From Deltaproteobacteria bacterium (GTDB taxonomy: Bacteria; UBA10199; SPLOWO2-01-44-7), in the NCBI GenBank assembly GCA_016213065.1, contig JACRBV010000050.1, forward strand, positions 1 to 35,318: a stretch of DNA of 35,318 nt, given 5' to 3'. This document shows positions 20,281 to 30,782 of the stretch, in pieces. The notes under the pieces were generated by a model. That model saw only the letters and a list, made by a program, of their open reading frames with translations. It made no database searches and had not been told where the DNA came from. Every line of letters begins with the position of its first letter. Within the stretch, counting starts at the first letter, position 1. Made by a program: the position numbers and the translations under genes.

Positions 20281-21876
20281 ATGGGAATGAATCTTGCAAG
20301 AAAGTGGGGGATGCGACTTCCTTACTCCTTTGGCCGTTACGTGATGACCCAAAAAATTGCGCAGGGGGGAATGGCCGAAATTTTCAAAGGAAAATTTGTG
20401 GGGGAGAGTGGTTTCACCAAAGAGGTGGCGATCAAACGTCTGCTTCCAATCTGGTCGGACAATCCCAATTTTATCAACATGTTGATTGATGAAGCCAAAG
20501 CATTGGTTCATCTCAATCATCCCAACATCGTCCAGATTTTTGATTTGGGACGTGACGAAAAAACTTTTTATATCTCGATGGAATGGGTGGATGGCATCGA
20601 CCTTCGCCGGTTTTTTTTGAAGGGTGTCGAAACCGAAAGGGAATGTCCTCTTTCTATCACCCTTTTTATTATTTTAGAGGTTTTGAAAGCGCTCGACTAT
20701 GCCCACCATAAAATCCATCTGGTCCACCGCGACGTTTCGCCCCAAAATATCCTTCTCTCTTATGAAGGGCAGGTGAAACTGACCGATTTTGGAATTGCCA
20801 AGGGGAATCACCGTTCTCAGGAAACCACGCAAGCGCAGGTGAAGGGGAAATATACTTACATGTCTCCGGAACAGGCGCGCGGAGAAACCATCGATTGCCG
20901 GACCGATTTATATGCGCTGGGAATTGTTTTCTATGAATTGTTGGAGGGGAAACGCCTCTTTGATGGAGTAAATGATTTGGCAACTTTGGAACAGGTTCGG
21001 GAAGCAAGACTCCCGAAGGGCGCTTTGCAAAAGTGGCCCGCTATTTTGCGCGGGATTGTGTTGAAGGCGCTTCAAAAAGAAACGCAATATCGCTATCAAA
21101 CCGCCGCAGAGTTTTTGAAGGACTTGCAAAAGTTTATCGAAAAACAAAACCTCAGAACAGCTTCTTCAGAGTTGGCTTCGTATCTCTCTGAAATATCGCC
21201 GAAAAATGAAGATAAAGTAGGTGTTGAGACAACCGTTTCGAACGGAACGGGTGTGGAGAAAAAATCTTTCCCCACGCCGCTTTTTTTTGGGATTCTTTTC
21301 TTTTTTCTGATGTGTCTCGGCGGCGGTTTTTTATGGAGGTCGTCCAAAAAAGAAACCACGAAGCAAAATAATGTGTCTGTCGCTGAAAAAATTGCCATCC
21401 CCCCTTTGAGAGGATCCATCACCATCAATTCCAAACCAAAATCGTTCCGTGGGCATTTAAGTTTTGGAGGTATGGAAAAAGATTTTGAAACACCTTTCCA
21501 TTTGGCCGATCTGGATGTGGAAGAGGAAAAAGAAGGAAAAATCAAAATCTTGAGCGACAAAGGTAAAGAAATTATTGAGAAATTTTCCTTGGGTCCCCTC
21601 AACCCAAATTGGGCCAAGACGGTGGTGGTGGAAGAACCCAAACCCGGTTCTCTGAAAGTGGCGGCCAAACCATGGGGGCAGGTTTCCATTCCGGGAGTTG
21701 TGAGGGATCGGGAAACGCCTCTGAACACCGTTCACTTGGAGCCGGGAGAATATCGAGTGCAGGTCGCCTACCCTCCCACCAATCAAAAAACCGAAAAAGT
21801 GATTCAAATAGCCAGCGGCGCCGACATTGTCTGCCAAGCCGACTTCAGCACCAAACCAACCCTTGTTTGCCGCTGA
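20281..21876 (+). CDS. Ser/Thr protein kinase with C-terminal PEGA domain
   Basis: 531 residues from ATG 20281; ATG 20311 (MRLPYSFGRY), with AGTGGGGG directly before it, is also possible. The kinase domain is at about 18-285: glycine loop IAQGGMAEIFKG, Lys52 (VAIKRL), HRDVSPQN with Asp151, DFG 169-171, MSPEQARGE and DLYALGIVFYELL. A membrane segment at about 331-352 is followed by an outside region and a PEGA domain at about 456-522 (GSLKVAAKPWGQV, LEPGEYRVQV). The kinase is cytoplasmic and the PEGA domain periplasmic, an arrangement common in myxobacterial signalling. No linked phosphatase or FHA partner is seen. Confidence 0.92.
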   Translation: MGMNLARKWGMRLPYSFGRYVMTQKIAQGGMAEIFKGKFVGESGFTKEVAIKRLLPIWSDNPNFINMLIDEAKALVHLNHPNIVQIFDLGRDEKTFYISMEWVDGIDLRRFFLKGVETERECPLSITLFIILEVLKALDYAHHKIHLVHRDVSPQNILLSYEGQVKLTDFGIAKGNHRSQETTQAQVKGKYTYMSPEQARGETIDCRTDLYALGIVFYELLEGKRLFDGVNDLATLEQVREARLPKGALQKWPAILRGIVLKALQKETQYRYQTAAEFLKDLQKFIEKQNLRTASSELASYLSEISPKNEDKVGVETTVSNGTGVEKKSFPTPLFFGILFFFLMCLGGGFLWRSSKKETTKQNNVSVAEKIAIPPLRGSITINSKPKSFRGHLSFGGMEKDFETPFHLADLDVEEEKEGKIKILSDKGKEIIEKFSLGPLNPNWAKTVVVEEPKPGSLKVAAKPWGQVSIPGVVRDRETPLNTVHLEPGEYRVQVAYPPTNQKTEKVIQIASGADIVCQADFSTKPTLVCR

Positions 21877-21972: not shown

Positions 21973-23635
21973 ATGTCTTTTGGTCTGACATTGCAGACGT
22001 TTAACGATCTTATCGCCTTTTAATCCGGCCTTGAATTGTTTGTTGTGCAGGCGGGAGTGGAGCCGGCGGATATTGAAACGGCTCAAGCTACCTATTCACT
22101 CATTGAAACAACACAGGCCAATCCATTTCATGATAGAAGAGTTTTACAACGAAGGCTTTTGGAATCAGCCATGAGGGATCCAAAAATTGCTGAAGTATTC
22201 CTGCGTGCTTTGGCATTGAAACCGTCTTCTGTCCCACAACACACGCAACGTTTTGCAACACATTTCGATCCCTCTCTCTTTTTGAAAAACAAGACCGGTT
22301 CCGCACAACTTGCTGTTGGAGCAAGCGCATCACGAAGGCCAAGAAATTCGCCTCACCGTGCCGCGGTCTTTGCGGCTGGTCCGGCGAGAGGGATCGCTGA
22401 AAGACTCCGACTTCTTAACAAAAATCCGTATTTTCTGGTTATCATACCCTCAGACCGCAAATCTTTTCTTGATGGACTTGCAATGATTTCGCAACGAGAC
22501 AATATTTCTGCCTCTCCCCGTGCAAAATTGATTGTTGTAAAGTTGTCTGACGGTGGCACGGAAATCAGGATGCTTCAAAGCTCTATGTCACATGGCAAAG
22601 TTGTTTTGGAGGGAGAAAGAATTGTATGGCGCGGTTCGGTGAGGATTAGTCATGATGGTTCCAAAATGGATTTTGACGGTTTGGATAATTCTAATAGCTC
22701 GGATAGTTCTCATTGGTTACATGTCCCCCATGAATCCATTAAGACTGTCATTGGAGATGTTAATCTGGAACCACATGAATTGGCCATGCTTCACAAGACT
22801 GACAAACCGCCGCCAAGACAAACTCCAGATGTCGATGCCTATGTGAAAATTTCCTCTTTGGCAGAGGCACTCACTCTTCCAATGATGCGGGAGGTCAACA
22901 TGTTTGTGGTTGTTCGTTTGAAAGATGGTTCCATCGAAATGAGGGCGGGCGCAGGATTACATATGGCGATGATGGGTGAGAATGACGATCTGATCGCGAG
23001 CGGATGGTATGAGGTAAAAGGAAGAACAGTTACGCTTCACATTGATGGCAGGGAGGGCGATATTTCAGATATGGAAATTGATAGATTGATCCGGTCCCGA
23101 GTATTTAAGTGATGACGTCTGGGGAAATTCGGTTGCTATCGAATTTGAAACTCCACAACCATCATCCGCCGAAATAGAAGCAAGCTTATCTATACATAAC
23201 GTCATAAGTAATTGCGCATAGATGTCATTCTGAGCGAAGCGAAGAATCCCATGCCAATACTGTCCTCACTGGATTCTTCGCCTGCGGCTCAGAATGACAC
23301 CAGATAAGACATGTGCAAGTAATAATGATGTCGTCGCGTATATCTTACATAAAGCCAATAGAAATGATCACATCTACATTCCCAGAAATTGAGCAGAAGT
23401 ATTCACGGCTGTGCAAACATTTGAGAATATGTTTACGAGAAATATAAAGGGAATCATTGTCGAAATGGCAGATAGAGAACTTGAATTGAGGCTCGTAGCT
23501 GATAACAGAGGGACCCACCACAGCCTTGTGCTATTGGAAGAAAATTATTTGTCTTTCGGCAGTTATGATCATTACATTTCAGACGAAATAAAAATATTTC
23601 TGCATAAGTTTGATGATTGTGGCATTGGTCCGTAG
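21973..23635 (+). pseudogene. Decayed gene with repeated beta-type domains (nonsense, frameshift and element insertion)
   Basis: AAAGGGGAAACAGAT precedes ATG 21973, which reads MSFGLTLQTFNDLIAF and then TAA at 22021-22023; the same frame stays open to 23112 (about 358 residues from TTG 22036). Near 23090-23112 the coding signal moves to another frame (DDVWGNSVAIEFETPQPSSA), is split by a palindromic element (23191-23342), meets TGA at 23390 and ends at 23635. The protein has a repeated module: IVVKLSDGGTEIRML (about 22525), FVVVRLKDGSIEMRAG (22900) and GIIVEMADRELELRLV (23450), each followed by a glycine- or acid-rich strand region. I do not recognise the family. The piece 22036-23112 may still be expressed from an internal start, but no good ribosome site is visible. 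Confidence 0.7.
23191..23342. mobile_element. TA-bounded palindromic miniature element, type B, inside the decayed gene
   Basis: Core arms GTCATTCTGAGCGAAGCGAAGAATC (23224-23248) and GGATTCTTCGCCTGCGGCTCAGAATGACA (23271-23299). Outer arms TATACATAACG...TAATTGCGCAT and, on the minus strand, TATACGCGACG...TACTTGCACAT extend to TATAC ends at 23191 and 23342. The 152 bp minus one TA is 150 bp, or 50 codons. Confidence 0.7.
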
Positions 23636-23672
23636 ACCAAAATCCGTACACGTCCGCTTCATTTTCGTCGCT
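23634..23672. repeat. 39-bp direct repeat, left copy, flanking the ORF6N gene
   Basis: AGACCAAAATCCGTACA followed by CGTCCGCTTCATTTTCGTCGCT. It matches 24289-24327 at 34 of 39 positions; all five differences are transitions. It begins in the stop codon of the decayed gene. Confidence 0.85.
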
Positions 23673-23698
23673 CTATTTGGCAAGATGTAAAAAAATTC

Positions 23699-24295
23699 TC
23701 ACTCTTTTTGTCGAAATCCAATTTGTTTGTGTGGCGTTGGGGTTGCTGGTTCCATTAGTTGCCGGATTGCATTGAATAGGGATCGGATATGCACATCATG
23801 CTTGGTTACTTTTTGTTCTAGTTCCGCAAGTTTTTGAGCAAGCCCTTTGTGGGTTGCCAAAATTTCCTTCAGTTTGATAAAGGCTCGTACAACATAAATG
23901 CTAACCTCTATGGACCTATGTGTATTGAGTACGCTGGCCACCATAATTGCTCCATGTTCCGTAAAAGCATAGGGTAACGAGGTGGAATGTTTAAGATTTT
24001 TGAACCGGTCACAAATTGTGACCAGTTCATCTTTTTCACTTCCAGTTAATTGAAATATGAAATCCAAAGGAAAACGTTCCTTGTTTCGTTTAATCGCCTG
24101 ATTCAGAACTTTTGTAGGTACTCCATATAAGACAGCTAAATCGACGTCCAGCATGACTCGTGCACCACGGATCAGCAAGATTTGTTCGGCAATACTTTCC
24201 GTGTTCGATGTGTGTATCACATAAAATATATGAGCAAGAAGAATGCCAAGTATAAAGTGGCCAATAAACATATTTGAACATTTTGAACAGACCAA
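23699..24295 (-). CDS. ORF6N-domain (KilA-N related) DNA-binding protein
   Basis: 198 residues in the longest reading. The ORF6N domain is clear: ILLIRGARVMLDVDLAVLYGVPTKVLNQAIKRN, then RFPLDFIFQLT, LPYAFTEHGAIMVASVLN and a coiled-coil tail (LAQKLAELEQKV). The domain is known from phages, and solitary copies are widespread on bacterial chromosomes. The first 26 residues are hydrophobic and unlike the family, so initiation at GTG (Val27, about 24217) is likely. The gene lies between two 39-bp direct repeats, which suggests it arrived as a discrete cassette. Confidence 0.9.
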   Translation of the reverse strand: MVCSKCSNMFIGHFILGILLAHIFYVIHTSNTESIAEQILLIRGARVMLDVDLAVLYGVPTKVLNQAIKRNKERFPLDFIFQLTGSEKDELVTICDRFKNLKHSTSLPYAFTEHGAIMVASVLNTHRSIEVSIYVVRAFIKLKEILATHKGLAQKLAELEQKVTKHDVHIRSLFNAIRQLMEPATPTPHKQIGFRQKE

Positions 24296-24327
24296 AATCC
24301 GTACATGCCTGCTTCGTTTTCGTCACT
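24289..24327. repeat. 39-bp direct repeat, right copy, flanking the ORF6N gene
   Basis: AGACCAAAATCCGTACA followed by TGCCTGCTTCGTTTTCGTCACT, in the same orientation as 23634-23672 and 655 bp away. Confidence 0.85.
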
Positions 24328-24392: not shown

Positions 24393-27300
24393 GTGAAACT
24401 TCTTCTTTTTTTAGGATTGCTGTTGGCGTCACCCACACCCGACTTGATGACTCCGGAAGATGCGAGACAGCTTGCCGAAGTGATCGAAATGCCCGGAGTG
24501 GACCGGTTTATCAGCGATCAGGTTCAACAAAAATTGATTCAGGAGATGGGAAATAAAATGGCCGAGTGGGCGGCGGAAGGGTTGCATCAGTTGGTAAAAC
24601 CCGGTGCCGGAGATCCAAAACCGGAAACCAAAACAAGCCTCAAAGAAATATTTTTGCAAAACCCCCAGCTTTCAAAACAGCTCAAAATCGAAATTCAGAA
24701 ACGTCTGGAGGCGTGGATTCCAAAACAGGCGGAAAAAACACTCCGGGATGTATTCGGGCAGAATGAGGAATTGAAAGAGATCAAAGACCGGGTTGAAAAA
24801 GTTTTGAACACATCATTCAAAGACCAACTCGATGGTCTTATTTCTCCGTGGTATGACCAAATGTTGACAAGAAGTTTTTCCAAGGCCTCCGAGGCCCTTT
24901 CCGAGGCCAATGCGAATGCTTTTTTATCAAAACAGGTGTCGGATTTGATCGGCAAGGCGACCGTTCAGGGGCTTCAAAATCAGATCCGGGAAAATTTACC
25001 TTCCGCTCAGTTCGCAAAAGTAAAAGAGAAGGTGATGGGACTGCATATTGTTGATCTGCCGAATCAGGCCTATGGCGGTATTTTGGCCGCCTCCGCGGCG
25101 ATGCACTTTGCAAAAGCTTTTGCCGGCATGCACGTTAATCTTTATGAACTCAAGCGGGGCAAAGAGGTAAGCGAGACAATGCTCTGGCAGTTGCGCACCA
25201 AACAGTATGTTTCTTTTAATCTGGGCGATTTTATCGGGATGGTCAAAATGCTCGGGGATCAGGTGGGGAGTTTTCATTGGGGCGCTCTGAAGCAGATGGC
25301 GAAGTGGAATCCCGCCAACCAATTTTTGGAAAAACTCGACGGGCTTGAAAAACAACTGAAAAAAATCGACGATCTCTATGACAAAACCACCGGAAAAGTT
25401 CAGGAGGGTTTTGAAAATGTGCTGGGAGATTTGCGCGGGGAATTGGACAAAATGTCGAGGGAAATGCTGGGTCCCCTGACGATGAAACTTCCGTGTCTCA
25501 CTCCAGAAGGCTGTCCCGATTTGTTGCCGGATATTTTAGGCAAAACGCCCATGGATTATCTGAAAAAGTTTTATGCCGATTCGGGATTGAAAGAAACGTT
25601 GAAGGAAGTGAACAAACAAATTTCGGGAGGTTTGGCGGGGGCGGCCGTGGCAACCACCGATTTTTTGCACATCACCGGACCCGTGGCGGAAATTCTGAAG
25701 GTGGAAAAAATTCCGCCGCAAAATCCTTCGCAGGATTCCGATTTTGATCCTGTGTTTTTGCACACGGGAGAATTTTATTTACCCGTGACCGATGTGACAC
25801 TGCCGGGCGGAAACATGAAATTGCAGTTCACGCGGATTTATCGTTCACAATCCGAATTCATGGGAGCGCTCGGTTTCAACTGGACTCATAATTTCGCGGA
25901 GCGTCTTCTTTTCTGGGATAGTCCCGACGGGTCCGGATACACGTATGTTGATAACTCCAGTAAAAAATTCTTCTTCCGCCAAATGGAAGAGGGGTTTGAA
26001 TCTCCGGCCGGTCTCTTTTTGACGCTGAAAGAAATTGATTCCGGATTTGTGCTTGAAGATTGGGAGGGAGGAACGCGTTATTTTAATAAAGAAGGAGTGC
26101 TCGCCAAAATTCGCAATGCGGCGGGCGAAGAACAAACGCTTGTCTATGAGGATAAAGACCTTTTACAGCGTGTGGAAGATGGCAGACAGCATACTCTCCA
26201 ATTTTTCTATCAACCCGATGGATTGCTGGAAAGAGTTGAAGATTTCACGGGGCGTGTCTGGAAATTTGAATACAACAAAGAACACGAACTCATTGCCGCT
26301 ACCTCTCCGGGTACGCCTGATTTTCCAAAAGGAAAAACCACCCATTACCATTACGACAAACATCGCCTGATTTTAATGATGGATCCTAAAGGTCAGATCT
26401 TTTTGCAAAATTATTACGGCGAGTCGGGTGAAAATTTTGGAAAGGTGATGATGCAAAAATATGGGAATGAGACGGCTTCCATTGAAGCCAGATATGATGG
26501 CTTAAATACGTGGGTAAAGGATCGCAGAGGCATCTTGCATCTTTATGAACACGATGAAGAGGGACATTTGTTGCGCCGAAAACTTGTGAAAGAAAATGAA
26601 ACACAAAAAACACTGCGTCAGTTTGAATACAACAAAGCCGGTTTGTGTACGGCGGAAATTTTTCCGAGCGGATTGAAAATTGAATACCAGTGGGAAGGAC
26701 CGAAGTTGGTGAAAAGAACAATGGTGGCGAGGGATGGAACGAAATTGATTCTGAATAGTTCTTCTCATCCCGAATCCTCGACAATTTCAGAAAAGACAGA
26801 GCCGTTTTATCAATACGATTTGTGGGGAAATATTATTTCCGTGACAAGTGCCGACGGCGAAACCAGAAAACTGGAAGTGAACGCCTCCAACTTGGTGATC
26901 AAAGAAAACATCAAAGGAGAAAATCGTTTTTACCGCTATGATGCCAACGACAACATCATCCAGATGAAAATTCCCGAAAGGAAACTCGAAGTCTCTTTTG
27001 AATACGACGTGCTCGATCGACTCACCGCGAAAAAAGAAATTTTGGATGGTGATCACGCCATCACCACGCGTTATGAACAAGACCCGGAAGGCCATCTCAC
27101 CCGTTTTGTTTATCCGATGGGGAATGAAGATCGGTTTGTCTACGATGATGAGGGACGGCTTATGCAGAAGATTCGCGGGTTTGGGACATTAGAACAGTCG
27201 GTTGAAAAATACGAATACGATGAAGATGGCAATCTGGTTGCGGTCATTGATGGGGAAGGAAACAAGACCACCTATTTTTACGATCCTTTCGGCAGAAATA

Positions 27301-29657
27301 CCGGTTTTCGAACTCCGATGGGAAATGAAACTCAATACATACTTAATGAAGAGGGCTATGTTGTCGAAAAAGAACAGAGGGATGGCGACGGAAAATTATT
27401 GGCGAAAGAAAAATGGGAATATAAACAAGAAAAAATCGCAAAATATTTTAGATATCTTTTTCGCGACAATCCGAAAAAGGGCACATGGATTGAGATGACA
27501 TTGCGAGCGCAAGCGAAGCAATCTCCATTTGAGTCCACGGGAGATTCTTCGGCCTTAAGGCCTCAGAATGGCATTCAATCGAATGGCTTCGTTCGAGACT
27601 CCCTCGGTCGTCCGATTCAAATCGAAAAAACGAAACTGGAGTGGGATGACAATGGGCGTTTGGCGGTCCTCACCGCGGAAAATGGCGAGACCACAACTTA
27701 TGCCTATGATGCGCAAAATCGCCTGTCGCTGGAACATTATCTCAACGGCACGGAAGTCAGATATGCCTACGATGACGCCGACCGTCTGACGGGGATAATA
27801 GACCGGAGAGGTCTTGCTTGGCGGTTTGATTATAATAAGGATGGCAAACCGATTTGCCGCCATGCCGGACGGCAGGAACAGCATTTTGTTTATGACGGAT
27901 TGGGGCGCCTCATCGAGTCGATTGATTTTAACGAACCCGATGATGCCGGAGATGACATCTCCGCCCGATTCGTTTGGGATTCCTTTTCCCACGCGGTCGG
28001 CGAGTCGCTGAACGGACGCTGGGTCTACAAAAATTACGACAAGGAGGGAAACAAGATCGCCCTCGATTATCCTTCAAAGCTTCAAATCATTCGGCAGTTT
28101 GATACCGGTAGAAAAATGACAGGTACTTTTGTGGAAGGAAAAGAAATCATTCCCACACCCGAAGTGCAGGATATTTTCAGTTTGGAAGAGCCGCCGTTGC
28201 GGCGGCCAAGCCGCGATGAGGCTGGTTTGGTGAGACAGGACGGGAATTTTTTGTATCGCTATGATGATTGGGGGCGCCTGATCGAAATTCAAAATCAAAA
28301 TGGTGAATCCCTTTCACGTTATACTTATGATGTCTTTAATCGTGTAGCCCGCACGGACAAGGAAGAGTTCAGTTACGATGAGTGGGAAACCATCCAAACT
28401 TTTTCAAAAGGGACGGCGGCGCAAAGCATTATTTATGCCGATCATTTCGATACCCCTCTTTTGCTGATGAATCACTCCGGTGAAAGAAAAGGAAATTATT
28501 ACTATCATCAAGACCGCCGAGGTTCCGTTCGTTTTTTGAGTGACGCGGACGGAAAAATTCTAGAACGTTATGACTATTCCCCCTTTGGAGCGATGGAAAT
28601 TCACGACAACAACGGCAACCTCTTGCGGGATTCGCAGGTAGGAAATTTTCTGGGCTATATCGCGCGCCCATTTGATGGGCAAACCAGACTTGTCAATTTA
28701 CGCATGCGTTATTACGCGCCGGAGTTGCGGGAATTTATAACGCCCGATCCGCTCGGCTACAAAAATAATTTTTTTGCCGACTCGAGCGTTTTTACTCCCC
28801 GCAATTTCTCGTACCATCAAGGTCAGGGAGGAGCCTCTCGTACCACCATTCCTAATTTTGTGAGGGATGGTGAAAAAACACTTCTTCTCGATATTGATCT
28901 GTTTTATGAAAACCCGCCTAGAGATTTTTCCGCACCCGAAATGAATTTGTATGCCTATGCCGGCGGCGACCCCATCAACAATTTTGATCCGCTGGGGTTG
29001 TATTCGTTGGTTGTAGATAAGAGCAGAAACGAGATGACACTGTACGATCAGTATCGGAAAGAGATTGGACGATGGGAGTCGCGAACGGAGGGAATGGGAG
29101 ATGGAAAGAAGAAATCTATCAGAAATCATGATTGGACCATAACGAATGGAGATACACCCACGGGGACTTATAAGATTGATCCGGACCGTGTGATTAAGCG
29201 CTCCGAAATCAACGAGCGGGCTCGCAACGATCCGGGTCATGGACTTAAGCGCTCCGAAATTGGCAGATGGCCTCGCGGAAAAGGAAAAATAGATAATGAT
29301 AAATCTTATGGATTAGGAAAAATAAATATGGAACCTGTTTCCGGCAATGCACTCATTGCCAAGAACAAATATAGGCGCAATGGTTTCGCAATTCACGGAG
29401 GAGGCAAGAGCAAACTGGTGCCTGATCCTTTCAAACCTGAGCAGGGTTGGGCGCCAACGCAAGGATGCGTTCGAATGCAAAACCGTGATGTGATTGAATT
29501 AATCAACGAGATTCGTATTCTTAGAGATGCAGGAGATATAAATGGAACCGTGGAAGTCGTCGATTCTATCTCACAATCCTTTCCTGATCTGAATTATCGC
29601 AATCAACATGATATAAACCCAATTTTACCCCCCTTTCCGGGAAGGAGTCCCAAATGA
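24393..29657 (+). CDS. Secreted RHS/YD-repeat protein with a C-terminal L,D-transpeptidase-like domain
   Basis: 1754 residues from GTG 24393, no clear ribosome site. A short Sec-type signal (MKLLLFLGLLLASPTP) opens the protein, followed by about 420 mostly helical residues of no known family. A DUF6531-like start is at about 448-490 (HTGEFYLPVTDVTLPGGN, FTRIYRS), then about 30 YD-type repeats to about 1400 and the RHS core RMRYYAPELREFITPDPLGY near 1437-1457. Unusually, about 60 residues separate this from NLYAYAGGDPINNFDPLGLY (about 1518-1536). The variable tip (1537-1754) has IHGGG with His1668 and APTQGCVRMQNRDVIEL with Cys1692, the layout of YkuD L,D-transpeptidases; the His normally before Gly-Cys is Gln. 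A 93-bp palindrome is in frame at about 1032-1063. The stop overlaps the next gene's start (ATGA). Likely a peptidoglycan-acting polymorphic toxin. Confidence 0.88.
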   Translation: MKLLLFLGLLLASPTPDLMTPEDARQLAEVIEMPGVDRFISDQVQQKLIQEMGNKMAEWAAEGLHQLVKPGAGDPKPETKTSLKEIFLQNPQLSKQLKIEIQKRLEAWIPKQAEKTLRDVFGQNEELKEIKDRVEKVLNTSFKDQLDGLISPWYDQMLTRSFSKASEALSEANANAFLSKQVSDLIGKATVQGLQNQIRENLPSAQFAKVKEKVMGLHIVDLPNQAYGGILAASAAMHFAKAFAGMHVNLYELKRGKEVSETMLWQLRTKQYVSFNLGDFIGMVKMLGDQVGSFHWGALKQMAKWNPANQFLEKLDGLEKQLKKIDDLYDKTTGKVQEGFENVLGDLRGELDKMSREMLGPLTMKLPCLTPEGCPDLLPDILGKTPMDYLKKFYADSGLKETLKEVNKQISGGLAGAAVATTDFLHITGPVAEILKVEKIPPQNPSQDSDFDPVFLHTGEFYLPVTDVTLPGGNMKLQFTRIYRSQSEFMGALGFNWTHNFAERLLFWDSPDGSGYTYVDNSSKKFFFRQMEEGFESPAGLFLTLKEIDSGFVLEDWEGGTRYFNKEGVLAKIRNAAGEEQTLVYEDKDLLQRVEDGRQHTLQFFYQPDGLLERVEDFTGRVWKFEYNKEHELIAATSPGTPDFPKGKTTHYHYDKHRLILMMDPKGQIFLQNYYGESGENFGKVMMQKYGNETASIEARYDGLNTWVKDRRGILHLYEHDEEGHLLRRKLVKENETQKTLRQFEYNKAGLCTAEIFPSGLKIEYQWEGPKLVKRTMVARDGTKLILNSSSHPESSTISEKTEPFYQYDLWGNIISVTSADGETRKLEVNASNLVIKENIKGENRFYRYDANDNIIQMKIPERKLEVSFEYDVLDRLTAKKEILDGDHAITTRYEQDPEGHLTRFVYPMGNEDRFVYDDEGRLMQKIRGFGTLEQSVEKYEYDEDGNLVAVIDGEGNKTTYFYDPFGRNTGFRTPMGNETQYILNEEGYVVEKEQRDGDGKLLAKEKWEYKQEKIAKYFRYLFRDNPKKGTWIEMTLRAQAKQSPFESTGDSSALRPQNGIQSNGFVRDSLGRPIQIEKTKLEWDDNGRLAVLTAENGETTTYAYDAQNRLSLEHYLNGTEVRYAYDDADRLTGIIDRRGLAWRFDYNKDGKPICRHAGRQEQHFVYDGLGRLIESIDFNEPDDAGDDISARFVWDSFSHAVGESLNGRWVYKNYDKEGNKIALDYPSKLQIIRQFDTGRKMTGTFVEGKEIIPTPEVQDIFSLEEPPLRRPSRDEAGLVRQDGNFLYRYDDWGRLIEIQNQNGESLSRYTYDVFNRVARTDKEEFSYDEWETIQTFSKGTAAQSIIYADHFDTPLLLMNHSGERKGNYYYHQDRRGSVRFLSDADGKILERYDYSPFGAMEIHDNNGNLLRDSQVGNFLGYIARPFDGQTRLVNLRMRYYAPELREFITPDPLGYKNNFFADSSVFTPRNFSYHQGQGGASRTTIPNFVRDGEKTLLLDIDLFYENPPRDFSAPEMNLYAYAGGDPINNFDPLGLYSLVVDKSRNEMTLYDQYRKEIGRWESRTEGMGDGKKKSIRNHDWTITNGDTPTGTYKIDPDRVIKRSEINERARNDPGHGLKRSEIGRWPRGKGKIDNDKSYGLGKINMEPVSGNALIAKNKYRRNGFAIHGGGKSKLVPDPFKPEQGWAPTQGCVRMQNRDVIELINEIRILRDAGDINGTVEVVDSISQSFPDLNYRNQHDINPILPPFPGRSPK
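27488..27580. mobile_element. In-frame palindromic element inside the RHS gene
   Basis: GATTGAGATGACATT (27488-27502) faces AATGGCATTCAATC (27567-27580). The inner arms are GCGAGCGCAAGCGAAGCAATCTC and GGAGATTCTTCGGCCTTAAG, a GTCATTGCGAGCGAAGCGAAGCAATC-type repeat common in proteobacterial genomes. Length 93 bp, or 31 codons. It replaces YD-like sequence with a Ser/Gln/Ala-rich stretch (TLRAQAKQSPFESTGDSS) between two repeats. Confidence 0.7.
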
Positions 29658-30187
29658 CAATCATAAAAAAATCCGCATTTCTGTTGGTGATGCTTCTCTC
29701 CATCCCATTGTGGGCTGAAGGACGCATTATCTATGGTGAAGGTTTTGCTTTTTCCGTGGAAGCGCCGACCAAATGGGTTTTGGATGTTTCCAATGCCCCG
29801 CCGGAACTCAATCTCATTTTGTACCCGCAAGGCCAAACTTGGGCCGATGCTTCTTCCGTGATGTATGCGAGAGTTTTGAAGAAGGGAAAGAGACAGATTC
29901 AGGATATTATAAAGGAAGACGAAGCCGATTTTTTACAACGTTGCCCGCAGGGAAAAATCGAGAAAAAATCGCTGACGGTCAAAATCAAAAACCCTTCAGA
30001 GACACGAAGTTTTCTTTGCTCCGGCAATGCTTATGAAGCCGTGACTTTCATTGATATCGAAAAAGTGGCGGTTCTTTTTGTCCTCAGTAGCCGCACCGAA
30101 ACCGCCTTCAATGCCGGTTTGAAAGATTTCGAAAATCTGGTCCGTTCTTTCGGCTGGATTGCCTCAGAAGTGAAAGCCAAACATTGA
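29654..30187 (+). CDS. Secreted small protein, candidate immunity protein of the RHS toxin
   Basis: 177 residues with a Sec signal peptide (MTIIKKSAFLLVMLLSIPLWA, cleavage after AEG or LWA). The mature part begins GRIIYGEGFAFSVEAPTKW and has alternating strand and helix patterns (LNLILYPQGQTWADASSVMYARVL, VAVLFVLSSRTETAFNAGLKDFENLV). It recalls PsbP/Mog1-like folds, to which DUF1795 Eag chaperones of RHS effectors belong, but those lack signal peptides. The start overlaps the RHS stop by 4 bp (ATGA), so the two proteins are co-translated. The periplasm is where an L,D-transpeptidase toxin would act, so immunity is the favoured role; a structural or chaperone role remains possible. Confidence 0.7.
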   Translation: MTIIKKSAFLLVMLLSIPLWAEGRIIYGEGFAFSVEAPTKWVLDVSNAPPELNLILYPQGQTWADASSVMYARVLKKGKRQIQDIIKEDEADFLQRCPQGKIEKKSLTVKIKNPSETRSFLCSGNAYEAVTFIDIEKVAVLFVLSSRTETAFNAGLKDFENLVRSFGWIASEVKAKH

Positions 30188-30213: not shown

Positions 30214-30411
30214 ATGCATATGAGAACAACACTTAATTTGGACGAGGCGCTTTACCGTGAGGCCGTCGAGGCTACCGGCGTTGAAGAGAAAACCCGGCTT
30301 ATTCACATGGGATTGAAGGCATTGATTCAAGGTGCCGCCTATAAACGGGTGGCACAGCTTTTTGGAAAAATCCCGGAAGCCAAACTCCCCAGAAGGCGAA
30401 GAATACGATGA
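30214..30411 (+). CDS. vapB: VapB-type antitoxin
   Basis: 65 residues from ATG 30214, preceded by AAGGTG at 7 nt. The N-terminal MRTTLNLDEALYREAVEATG is the ribbon-helix-helix segment of DUF2191 VapB antitoxins, and the basic C-terminus (KLPRRRRIR) contacts the toxin. It overlaps vapC by ATGA. It neutralises the VapC RNase and probably autorepresses the operon. Confidence 0.88.
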   Translation: MHMRTTLNLDEALYREAVEATGVEEKTRLIHMGLKALIQGAAYKRVAQLFGKIPEAKLPRRRRIR

Positions 30412-30782
30412 TCTTGGTGGATAGCAGTGTCTGGATTGATTTCTTTCACGGCAAAACAACAGCCACATCTTTGGGCCTGCTTGTCGAAACCGAAAAAGTG
30501 CTTTTGCATCCTTGGATTTTGGGAGAATTGATGGTGGGGCATTTGGGGAAACCAAGACAAAATCGCCTGAATGATTTGGGATTATTACCGAAGGCGGCGA
30601 TTCATTCCATAGAGGTCCTGAAAGATTTTGTAGAGCAGGAAAAACTTTTTGGTCTTGGCTTTTCTCTGGTCGATATCCAACTGGTTTATTCTTCTCTTTT
30701 GGAAGACGCTTTTATATGGACCTTTGATCGTAAACTCGATCTCTTGGCAAAACATTACAAAAAAGCCTATAGCGCTCTCTAA
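30408..30782 (+). CDS. vapC: VapC-type PIN-domain ribonuclease toxin
   Basis: 124 residues. The PIN acidic residues are visible as Asp5 ([11 protein letters not shown]), Glu40 (ILGELMVG), Asp89 (GFSLVDIQL) and Asp107 ([11 protein letters not shown]). The fold needs Mg2+ or Mn2+ and cuts RNA, commonly tRNA or rRNA. Coupled to vapB by a 4-bp overlap. It lies between the RHS module and uvrB, whose start is 5 bp past its stop. Confidence 0.93.

What the first reader, a model, noticed from the sequence alone, without database searches (positions are those of the whole stretch)
24393..30187. RHS protein ending in an L,D-transpeptidase-like domain, coupled to a secreted partner: a likely peptidoglycan-targeting toxin-immunity pair
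The C-terminal 218 residues, after the RHS core motif DPLGLY, contain IHGGG (His1668) and APTQGCVRM (Cys1692), the layout of the YkuD catalytic site. RHS proteins carry interchangeable toxic tips at exactly this place, and L,D-transpeptidase-fold toxins that attack the cell wall are known in type VI secretion (Tlde1). The adjacent gene overlaps by ATGA and has a Sec signal peptide, as expected for immunity in the periplasm. The RHS itself has an N-terminal signal and no visible VgrG, Hcp or PAAR partner, suggesting a delivery route other than type VI secretion. The combination appears new to me.
Basis: partly seen in the sequence, partly recalled or inferred. Interest (0 to 1): 0.85.

Follow-up and report, generated by a model that had tools for sequence, protein, structure and literature searches.

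The report
RHS protein with cell-wall-enzyme tip
The window holds a large secreted RHS protein ending in a cell-wall-remodelling enzyme (an L,D-transpeptidase) coupled to a small secreted partner; it is probably a toxin with its antidote of a kind already predicted in 2012, but the two partner families seen in this little-known bacterial phylum look new.

Summary
The 1754-aa RHS gene (24393-29657) ends, right after DPLGL, in a 218-aa domain that matches Pfam YkuD over the curated cut-off (48.4 bits, E 2e-12) with His1668 and Cys1692 in place. A gene for a 177-aa protein with a signal peptide overlaps it by ATGA. Across all 46 held genomes of the phylum the same RHS backbone carries YkuD tips in 10 genomes, one metzincin-like tip and one broken tip, at a locus that is largely conserved. 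The window's partner family has 5 members in the phylum: 3 directly behind RHS-YkuD genes and 1 in an island of wall-attacking effectors. In a sister lineage an unrelated secreted partner takes its place. The partner models as a PsbP/Mog1 fold, shared by the periplasmic immunity protein Tsi3 and by Eag chaperones. No TssB was found in the genome. The best reading is a Sec-exported polymorphic toxin with a periplasmic immunity protein (0.6). Weak points: G002, G011 and G031 have intact tips and no partner, and the partner family also occurs elsewhere. RHS toxins with L,D-peptidase tips, Sec export and linked immunity were catalogued in 2012 (PMC3482391), so the 'combination appears new' claim fails. 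New member of a known kind.

The parts
24393..29657 (+). RHS protein, 1754 aa: signal-like N-terminus, region 1-450 of unknown fold, DUF6531 plug 452-523, YD/RHS repeats, RHS core, YkuD tip
   Evidence: ORF; Pfam PF05593 181 bits, PF20148 59.7 bits, PF03734 43.8 bits; NCBIfam Rhs_assc_core 49.2 bits
28575..29000 (+). C-terminal part of the RHS core with the two DPxG motifs (D1452 and D1532); a roughly 58-residue insertion lies between them in this subfamily
   Evidence: motif positions; alignment A6; Rhs_assc_core model splits into 1-56 and 56-76
29001..29654 (+). C-terminal tip, L,D-transpeptidase (YkuD) domain, residues 1537-1754; His1668, Cys1692
   Evidence: PF03734 48.4 bits, E 2e-12; invariant H, C, R, GDTPxGxY; best fold hits in the PDB are L,D-transpeptidase-type or related cell-wall peptidase entries
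29654..30187 (+). secreted partner (type A), 177 aa, PsbP/Mog1-like fold, candidate periplasmic immunity protein
   Evidence: ATGA overlap; signal-like N-terminus; AlphaFold2 model pLDDT 68; Foldseek hits PsbP, Mog1, DcrB, SciW/EagT6, Tsi3
20281..21876 (+). Ser/Thr protein kinase gene upstream; a kinase gene is also found just before the RHS gene in G004, G031 and G036 (genomic context, role unknown)
   Evidence: PF00069 134.7 bits; neighbours

Best explanation
A Sec-exported RHS polymorphic toxin with its immunity gene. The RHS shell is exported, cleaves itself after DPLGL (inferred from the conserved DPxG motifs), and releases a Cys-dependent L,D-transpeptidase/L,D-carboxypeptidase domain. 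This domain acts on tetrapeptide stems of peptidoglycan in the periplasm of neighbouring cells. The co-translated PsbP/Mog1-fold partner goes to the producer's own periplasm and blocks the tip's active site, as Tsi3 does with Tse3. Shown here: the domain, its catalytic residues, the gene coupling, the recurrence and exchange of partners, the partner's fold at moderate confidence, and the lack of TssB. Inferred: export, cleavage, toxicity, delivery and inhibition.
For: YkuD domain over the cut-off in tips of G000, G002, G003, G004, G009 and G039 with invariant catalytic residues. Partner A is directly downstream of such tips in G000, G009 and G039, which belong to three families; only 5 of 46 phylum genomes have it at all. 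Partner B, unrelated and also with a signal-like N-terminus, overlaps the 3' end of the tip in G003, G004 and G005 and occurs in no other genome of the phylum. The tip is exchanged for a metzincin-like HExxHxxGxxD domain in G024 on the same backbone, upstream of the porin and uvrC genes that also flank the locus in the window's family. A partner-A homologue in G032 sits 4 nt behind a small protein with an H...SxGC motif, in an island with a YkuD protein (with its own signal-bearing neighbour) and a VgrG3-like peptidoglycan hydrolase. The partner fold matches Tsi3 (PMC3792639). Precedents: Tox-LD-peptidase in RHS toxins via T2SS/T6SS (PMC3482391); signal-bearing, T6SS-independent Rhs4 and Rhs5 of M. 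xanthus (PMC10433427); Sec-exported teneurin-like toxins with immunity genes (PMC13018210).
Against: G002, G011 and G031 have intact tips and no detectable partner. Tip and backbone trees are largely congruent, so most tips are inherited vertically; the A-to-B partner switch is one event in one clade. No orphan tip-immunity cassettes were seen next to the gene. The partner family has members away from L,D-transpeptidases in G014 and seven genomes of other phyla. The tip model is low in confidence (pLDDT 55.7). No delivery machine was identified.
Confidence: 0.6

Rival explanations
1. A self-directed envelope protein: the YkuD domain links the RHS protein to, or remodels, the producer's own peptidoglycan, and the partner is an accessory or regulator, not an antidote.
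For: Fixed locus and mostly vertical inheritance; intact tips without partner in G002, G011 and G031; the best fold hit is Bdellovibrio Bd1075, which from general knowledge is an L,D-carboxypeptidase acting on the cell's own wall.
Against: Placement exactly after the RHS self-cleavage motif; replacement of the tip by a metzincin-like domain in G024; fast divergence of the tip (33-40% identity against 62-67% for the adjacent core); partner exchange with tip type.
Confidence: 0.25
2. The RHS-YkuD protein is a toxin, but the partner is a chaperone or adaptor for the RHS protein, like the PsbP/Mog1-fold Eag chaperones of type VI Rhs effectors, and not an immunity protein.
For: Foldseek matches to SciW and EagT6; PsbP/MOG1-like adaptor genes next to RHS toxins (PMC3482391).
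Against: Eag genes lie upstream and act in the cytoplasm on N-terminal transmembrane segments (e.g. eagR1 upstream of rhsA, PMC8765631; mode of action from general knowledge); this gene lies downstream, overlaps the tip and has a signal-like N-terminus. In the tip-B clade the place is taken by an unrelated protein although the backbone is the same.
Confidence: 0.08
3. The toxin acts outside or on other organisms (for instance a predation factor released near a contact apparatus), so immunity is optional; the partner merely protects or stabilises in some lineages.
For: In G009 the RHS-partner pair is followed by a Tad/Flp pilus operon, and a Tad-like apparatus is used for contact killing in M. 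xanthus (PMC10433427); several lineages lack a partner.
Against: Seen in one genome only; no such operon next to the RHS gene in the window or in the other loci read.
Confidence: 0.07

Closest known systems
Tox-LD-peptidase of RHS polymorphic toxins (Zhang et al. 2012, PMC3482391)
   Same: L,D-peptidase domain at the C-terminus behind RHS repeats, export by Sec/T2SS, T6SS or TcdB/TcaC, linked immunity gene; delta-proteobacteria listed
   Different: Listed immunity families are Imm16 and Imm57; the partners here matched neither (no Pfam hit for P0003 at E up to 1; no Imm57 match over cut-off in 46 genomes). Long insertion between the two DPxG motifs here.
Tlde1/Tldi1 of Salmonella (PMC9638812)
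   Same: Cys L,D-transpeptidase-fold effector against peptidoglycan with a coupled immunity protein that has a Sec signal
   Different: Tlde1 is a small T6SS effector of its own Pfam family (PF10908); the window tip matches PF03734 and not PF10908, and sits on a Sec-exported RHS protein.
Tse3/Tsi3 of Pseudomonas aeruginosa (PMC3792639)
   Same: Periplasmic immunity protein of PsbP/Mog1-like beta-sandwich shape against a peptidoglycan enzyme; found by Foldseek with the partner model
   Different: The enzyme is a muramidase delivered by T6SS; no sequence relation shown.
Sec-exported RHS/teneurin-like toxins: M. xanthus Rhs4 and Rhs5 (PMC10433427), bacterial teneurin-like proteins (PMC13018210)
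   Same: Large RHS/YD protein with signal sequence, variable toxic C-terminus, adjacent immunity gene (teneurin-like), no T6SS needed or identified
   Different: Different tips; no YkuD tip was mentioned in the passages read; different N-terminal regions.

Membership tests
RHS polymorphic toxin | RHS/YD repeats and conserved core ending in DPxGL, with DUF6531 plug | tested here: met
RHS polymorphic toxin | DPXGX18DPXG aspartyl-protease motif | tested here: inconclusive
   Both DPxG motifs are conserved, at 1452 and 1532, but 76 residues lie between them because of an insertion instead of 18-19 (motif from PMC10684867)
RHS polymorphic toxin | variable C-terminal domain on a conserved backbone | tested here: met
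   YkuD types A, B and C, metzincin-like tip in G024, broken tip in G001; but most tips are vertically inherited
RHS polymorphic toxin | cognate immunity gene downstream | tested here: inconclusive
   Secreted partner present in G000, G003, G004, G005, G009 and G039; absent in G002, G011, G031 and G024; G036 ends at a contig end
RHS polymorphic toxin | toxicity of the tip and rescue by the partner | not testable with these tools
   needs an expression assay
L,D-transpeptidase (YkuD, PF03734) | profile match over the curated cut-off | tested here: met
   48.4 bits against 23.4
L,D-transpeptidase (YkuD, PF03734) | catalytic His and Cys with S/T-x-G-C | tested here: met
   H132, T153, G155, C156 and R158 of the tip invariant in seven homologues
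L,D-transpeptidase (YkuD, PF03734) | L,D-transpeptidase fold | tested here: met
   top Foldseek hits Bd1075, YkuD, an Acinetobacter L,D-transpeptidase and DpaA, best E 2.6e-4, although TM-scores are only 0.3-0.4 and pLDDT is 55.7
Tlde1 (PF10908) | match to the Tlde1 domain profile | tested here: not met
   no match for the window tip; 15.6 bits for G002, below the cut-off of 30.1
T6SS effector | T6SS sheath gene in the genome | tested here: not met
   no TssB/VipA in the 96%-complete genome; other T6SS genes not searched
Imm57 | match to PF15596 | tested here: not met
   no match over cut-off in 46 genomes
PsbP/Mog1-like proteins (partner) | fold similarity | tested here: met
   Foldseek E 5e-7 to PsbP, TM-score up to 0.58, single-sequence model pLDDT 68; by sequence only 17 bits for one relative

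The most novel reading that the evidence does not exclude
A Sec-exported RHS delivery protein kept at one chromosomal locus through a phylum-level lineage carries L,D-transpeptidase tips that are neutralised by two unrelated new immunity families, one of PsbP/Mog1 fold, and is delivered by contact through a Tad-like apparatus instead of a type VI system.
Probability: 0.12. Interest if true: 0.65.

Novelty: new member of a known kind. Interest (0 to 1): 0.4.

Why it matters
If right, it adds two periplasmic inhibitor families of L,D-transpeptidases, enzymes that in other bacteria help resist beta-lactams. It also shows a Sec-exported RHS system in a poorly studied phylum with no T6SS sheath gene found in the window's genome. 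Protein inhibitors of L,D-transpeptidases would be directly testable.

Tried and rejected
Type VI delivery: no TssB in the genome. Membership in Tlde1 and Imm57: not met. Partner as a known Pfam, NCBIfam or PADLOC family: no hit above cut-off; dsrA at 15.6 bits is spurious. Relatives in plasmids: none for the partner, only ordinary L,D-transpeptidases or short matches for the tip. Viral contigs: tip relatives are phage YkuD enzymes, and the two loci read (L099, L116) are not RHS genes. First genome-contig scan empty; the second returned one locus whose contig length equals that of G002. Outside the phylum the tip profile found only weak matches; those read were standalone L,D-transpeptidases. 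Profile comparison of the tips with the small G032 protein e1 was not significant, so its L,D-transpeptidase nature rests on a motif only. N-terminal 450 residues: no PDB relative.

Full report
What was checked. The gene at 24393-29657 encodes a 1754-residue RHS protein, and the next gene, 29654-30187, overlaps it by ATGA. The window is contig C50 of a 1.8-Mb, 96%-complete genome. Its phylum is represented by 46 held genomes of one class. One relative, G002, has a contig of the same length as JAUSII010000085.1, deposited as 'Deltaproteobacteria bacterium'; the phylum itself could not be named with the tools.

The tip. Residues 1537-1754 match Pfam YkuD with 48.4 bits, E 2e-12, cut-off 23.4. 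In an alignment of seven tips the residues GDTPxG, the His of IHG, and T-x-G-C with Arg are invariant. An AlphaFold2 model made with phage relatives is of low confidence (pLDDT 55.7). Even so, its ten best PDB matches are L,D-transpeptidase-type or related cell-wall peptidase entries, led by Bdellovibrio Bd1075 and B. subtilis YkuD. The genome has one other YkuD gene, on contig C140. The L,D-transpeptidase assignment is therefore firm.

The backbone. A search with the C-terminal RHS core found full-length relatives in 12 genomes including the window's own. All share a long insertion (about 58 residues in the window) between the two DPxG motifs. Ten carry YkuD-type tips: a loose type A (G000, G002, G009, G039), type B (G003, G004, G005) and type C (G011, G031, G036). 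The YkuD profile is over its cut-off for the type A tips and for G003 and G004; the type C tip of G011 scores 18.6 bits, below it. G024 has an HExxHxxGxxD metalloprotease-like tip and G001 a broken tip. The locus is largely conserved: a Ser/Thr kinase gene upstream in G000, G004, G031 and G036; uvrB, a porin gene and uvrC downstream in G002 and G003, with uvrB and the porin also next to the RHS gene in the window, G004 and G005; the porin and uvrC also downstream in G024 (uvrB, porin and uvrC named by reading the sequences, not by profile). Tip and backbone trees are broadly congruent, so this is mostly a vertically inherited gene whose tip has diverged fast (33-40% identity against 62-67% for the neighbouring core within the family) and has been replaced once.

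The partners. The window's partner has homologues in 5 of 46 phylum genomes. Three lie directly behind RHS-YkuD genes, in three different families. One (G032) lies 4 nt behind a small protein with an H...SxGC motif, in an island that also encodes a YkuD protein overlapping a gene for a signal-bearing protein, and a VgrG3-like peptidoglycan hydrolase of 172 bits. One (G014) stands apart. Type B tips have another secreted partner, overlapping the tip gene in G003, G004 and G005 and absent from all other genomes of the phylum. No partner is found behind the intact tips of G002, G011 and G031. In 385 genomes the type A family was found in 12; the seven outside the phylum are not next to L,D-transpeptidase or RHS genes within the 1.5 kb read on each side. 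The single-sequence model of the partner (pLDDT 68) matches PsbP, Mog1, DcrB, the Eag chaperones SciW and EagT6, and the immunity protein Tsi3. The fold thus fits both an inhibitor and a chaperone; the signal-like N-terminus, the downstream position and the partner exchange favour the inhibitor.

How it probably works. The RHS protein is exported by Sec, cleaves itself behind DPLGL and presents or releases the tip, which attacks tetrapeptide stems in the periplasm of a neighbour. The producer keeps the partner in its own periplasm. Export, cleavage, delivery, toxicity and inhibition are inferences. The genome lacks TssB. In G009 the RHS-partner pair is followed by a Tad/Flp pilus operon (pilin, TadE, TadG, RcpC, secretin, ATPase, TadB-like). 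As a Tad-like apparatus serves contact killing in M. xanthus (PMC10433427), this is a lead for delivery, from one genome only.

Known or new. Zhang et al. 2012 (PMC3482391) list Tox-LD-peptidase in RHS polymorphic toxins exported by T2SS/Sec, T6SS or TcdB/TcaC, with immunity families Imm16 and Imm57, and propose wall hydrolysis as the action. Signal-bearing, T6SS-independent Rhs toxins are known in M. xanthus (PMC10433427), and Sec-exported teneurin-like toxins with immunity genes were shown in 2026 (PMC13018210). What remains new are the two partner families and the lineage. The finding is a new member of a known kind.

Noticed in passing
window 23634-24327: An ORF6N gene (23699-24295, minus strand; PF10543 99 bits; matches PADLOC candidate family PDC-S05, 182 bits) lies between two 39-nt direct repeats (87% alike) just upstream of the RHS gene, as if inserted or duplicated there.
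   Followed up: partly
L018:8358-15824 (G009): The RHS-YkuD gene and its partner are directly followed by a Tad/Flp pilus secretion operon; possible delivery route.
   Followed up: partly
L023:7927-16001 (G032): Island with candidate wall-targeting effectors: a 246-aa protein with partner-A homologue, a VgrG3-like hydrolase (PF21277, 172 bits) and a YkuD protein overlapping a gene with a signal-like N-terminus; two of the effectors begin MGFAxExG.
   Followed up: partly
window 29178-29260: The window's tip has an extra stretch of about 40 residues absent from most of its relatives, containing a 32-nt direct repeat (81% alike).
   Followed up: no
L057 and L020 (G005, contigs C50 and C43): Two different versions of the type B RHS tip at contig ends; either two copies or strain mixture in the assembly.
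   Followed up: no
L039 (G001): The same RHS locus with a broken tip, followed by two small genes ahead of uvrB that resemble DUF4160 and DUF2442 (naming from memory, not scanned).
   Followed up: no
window 30408-30782: Small PIN-domain-like gene (17.7 bits, below cut-off) between the partner and uvrB; a similar gene is also present in G003.
   Followed up: no
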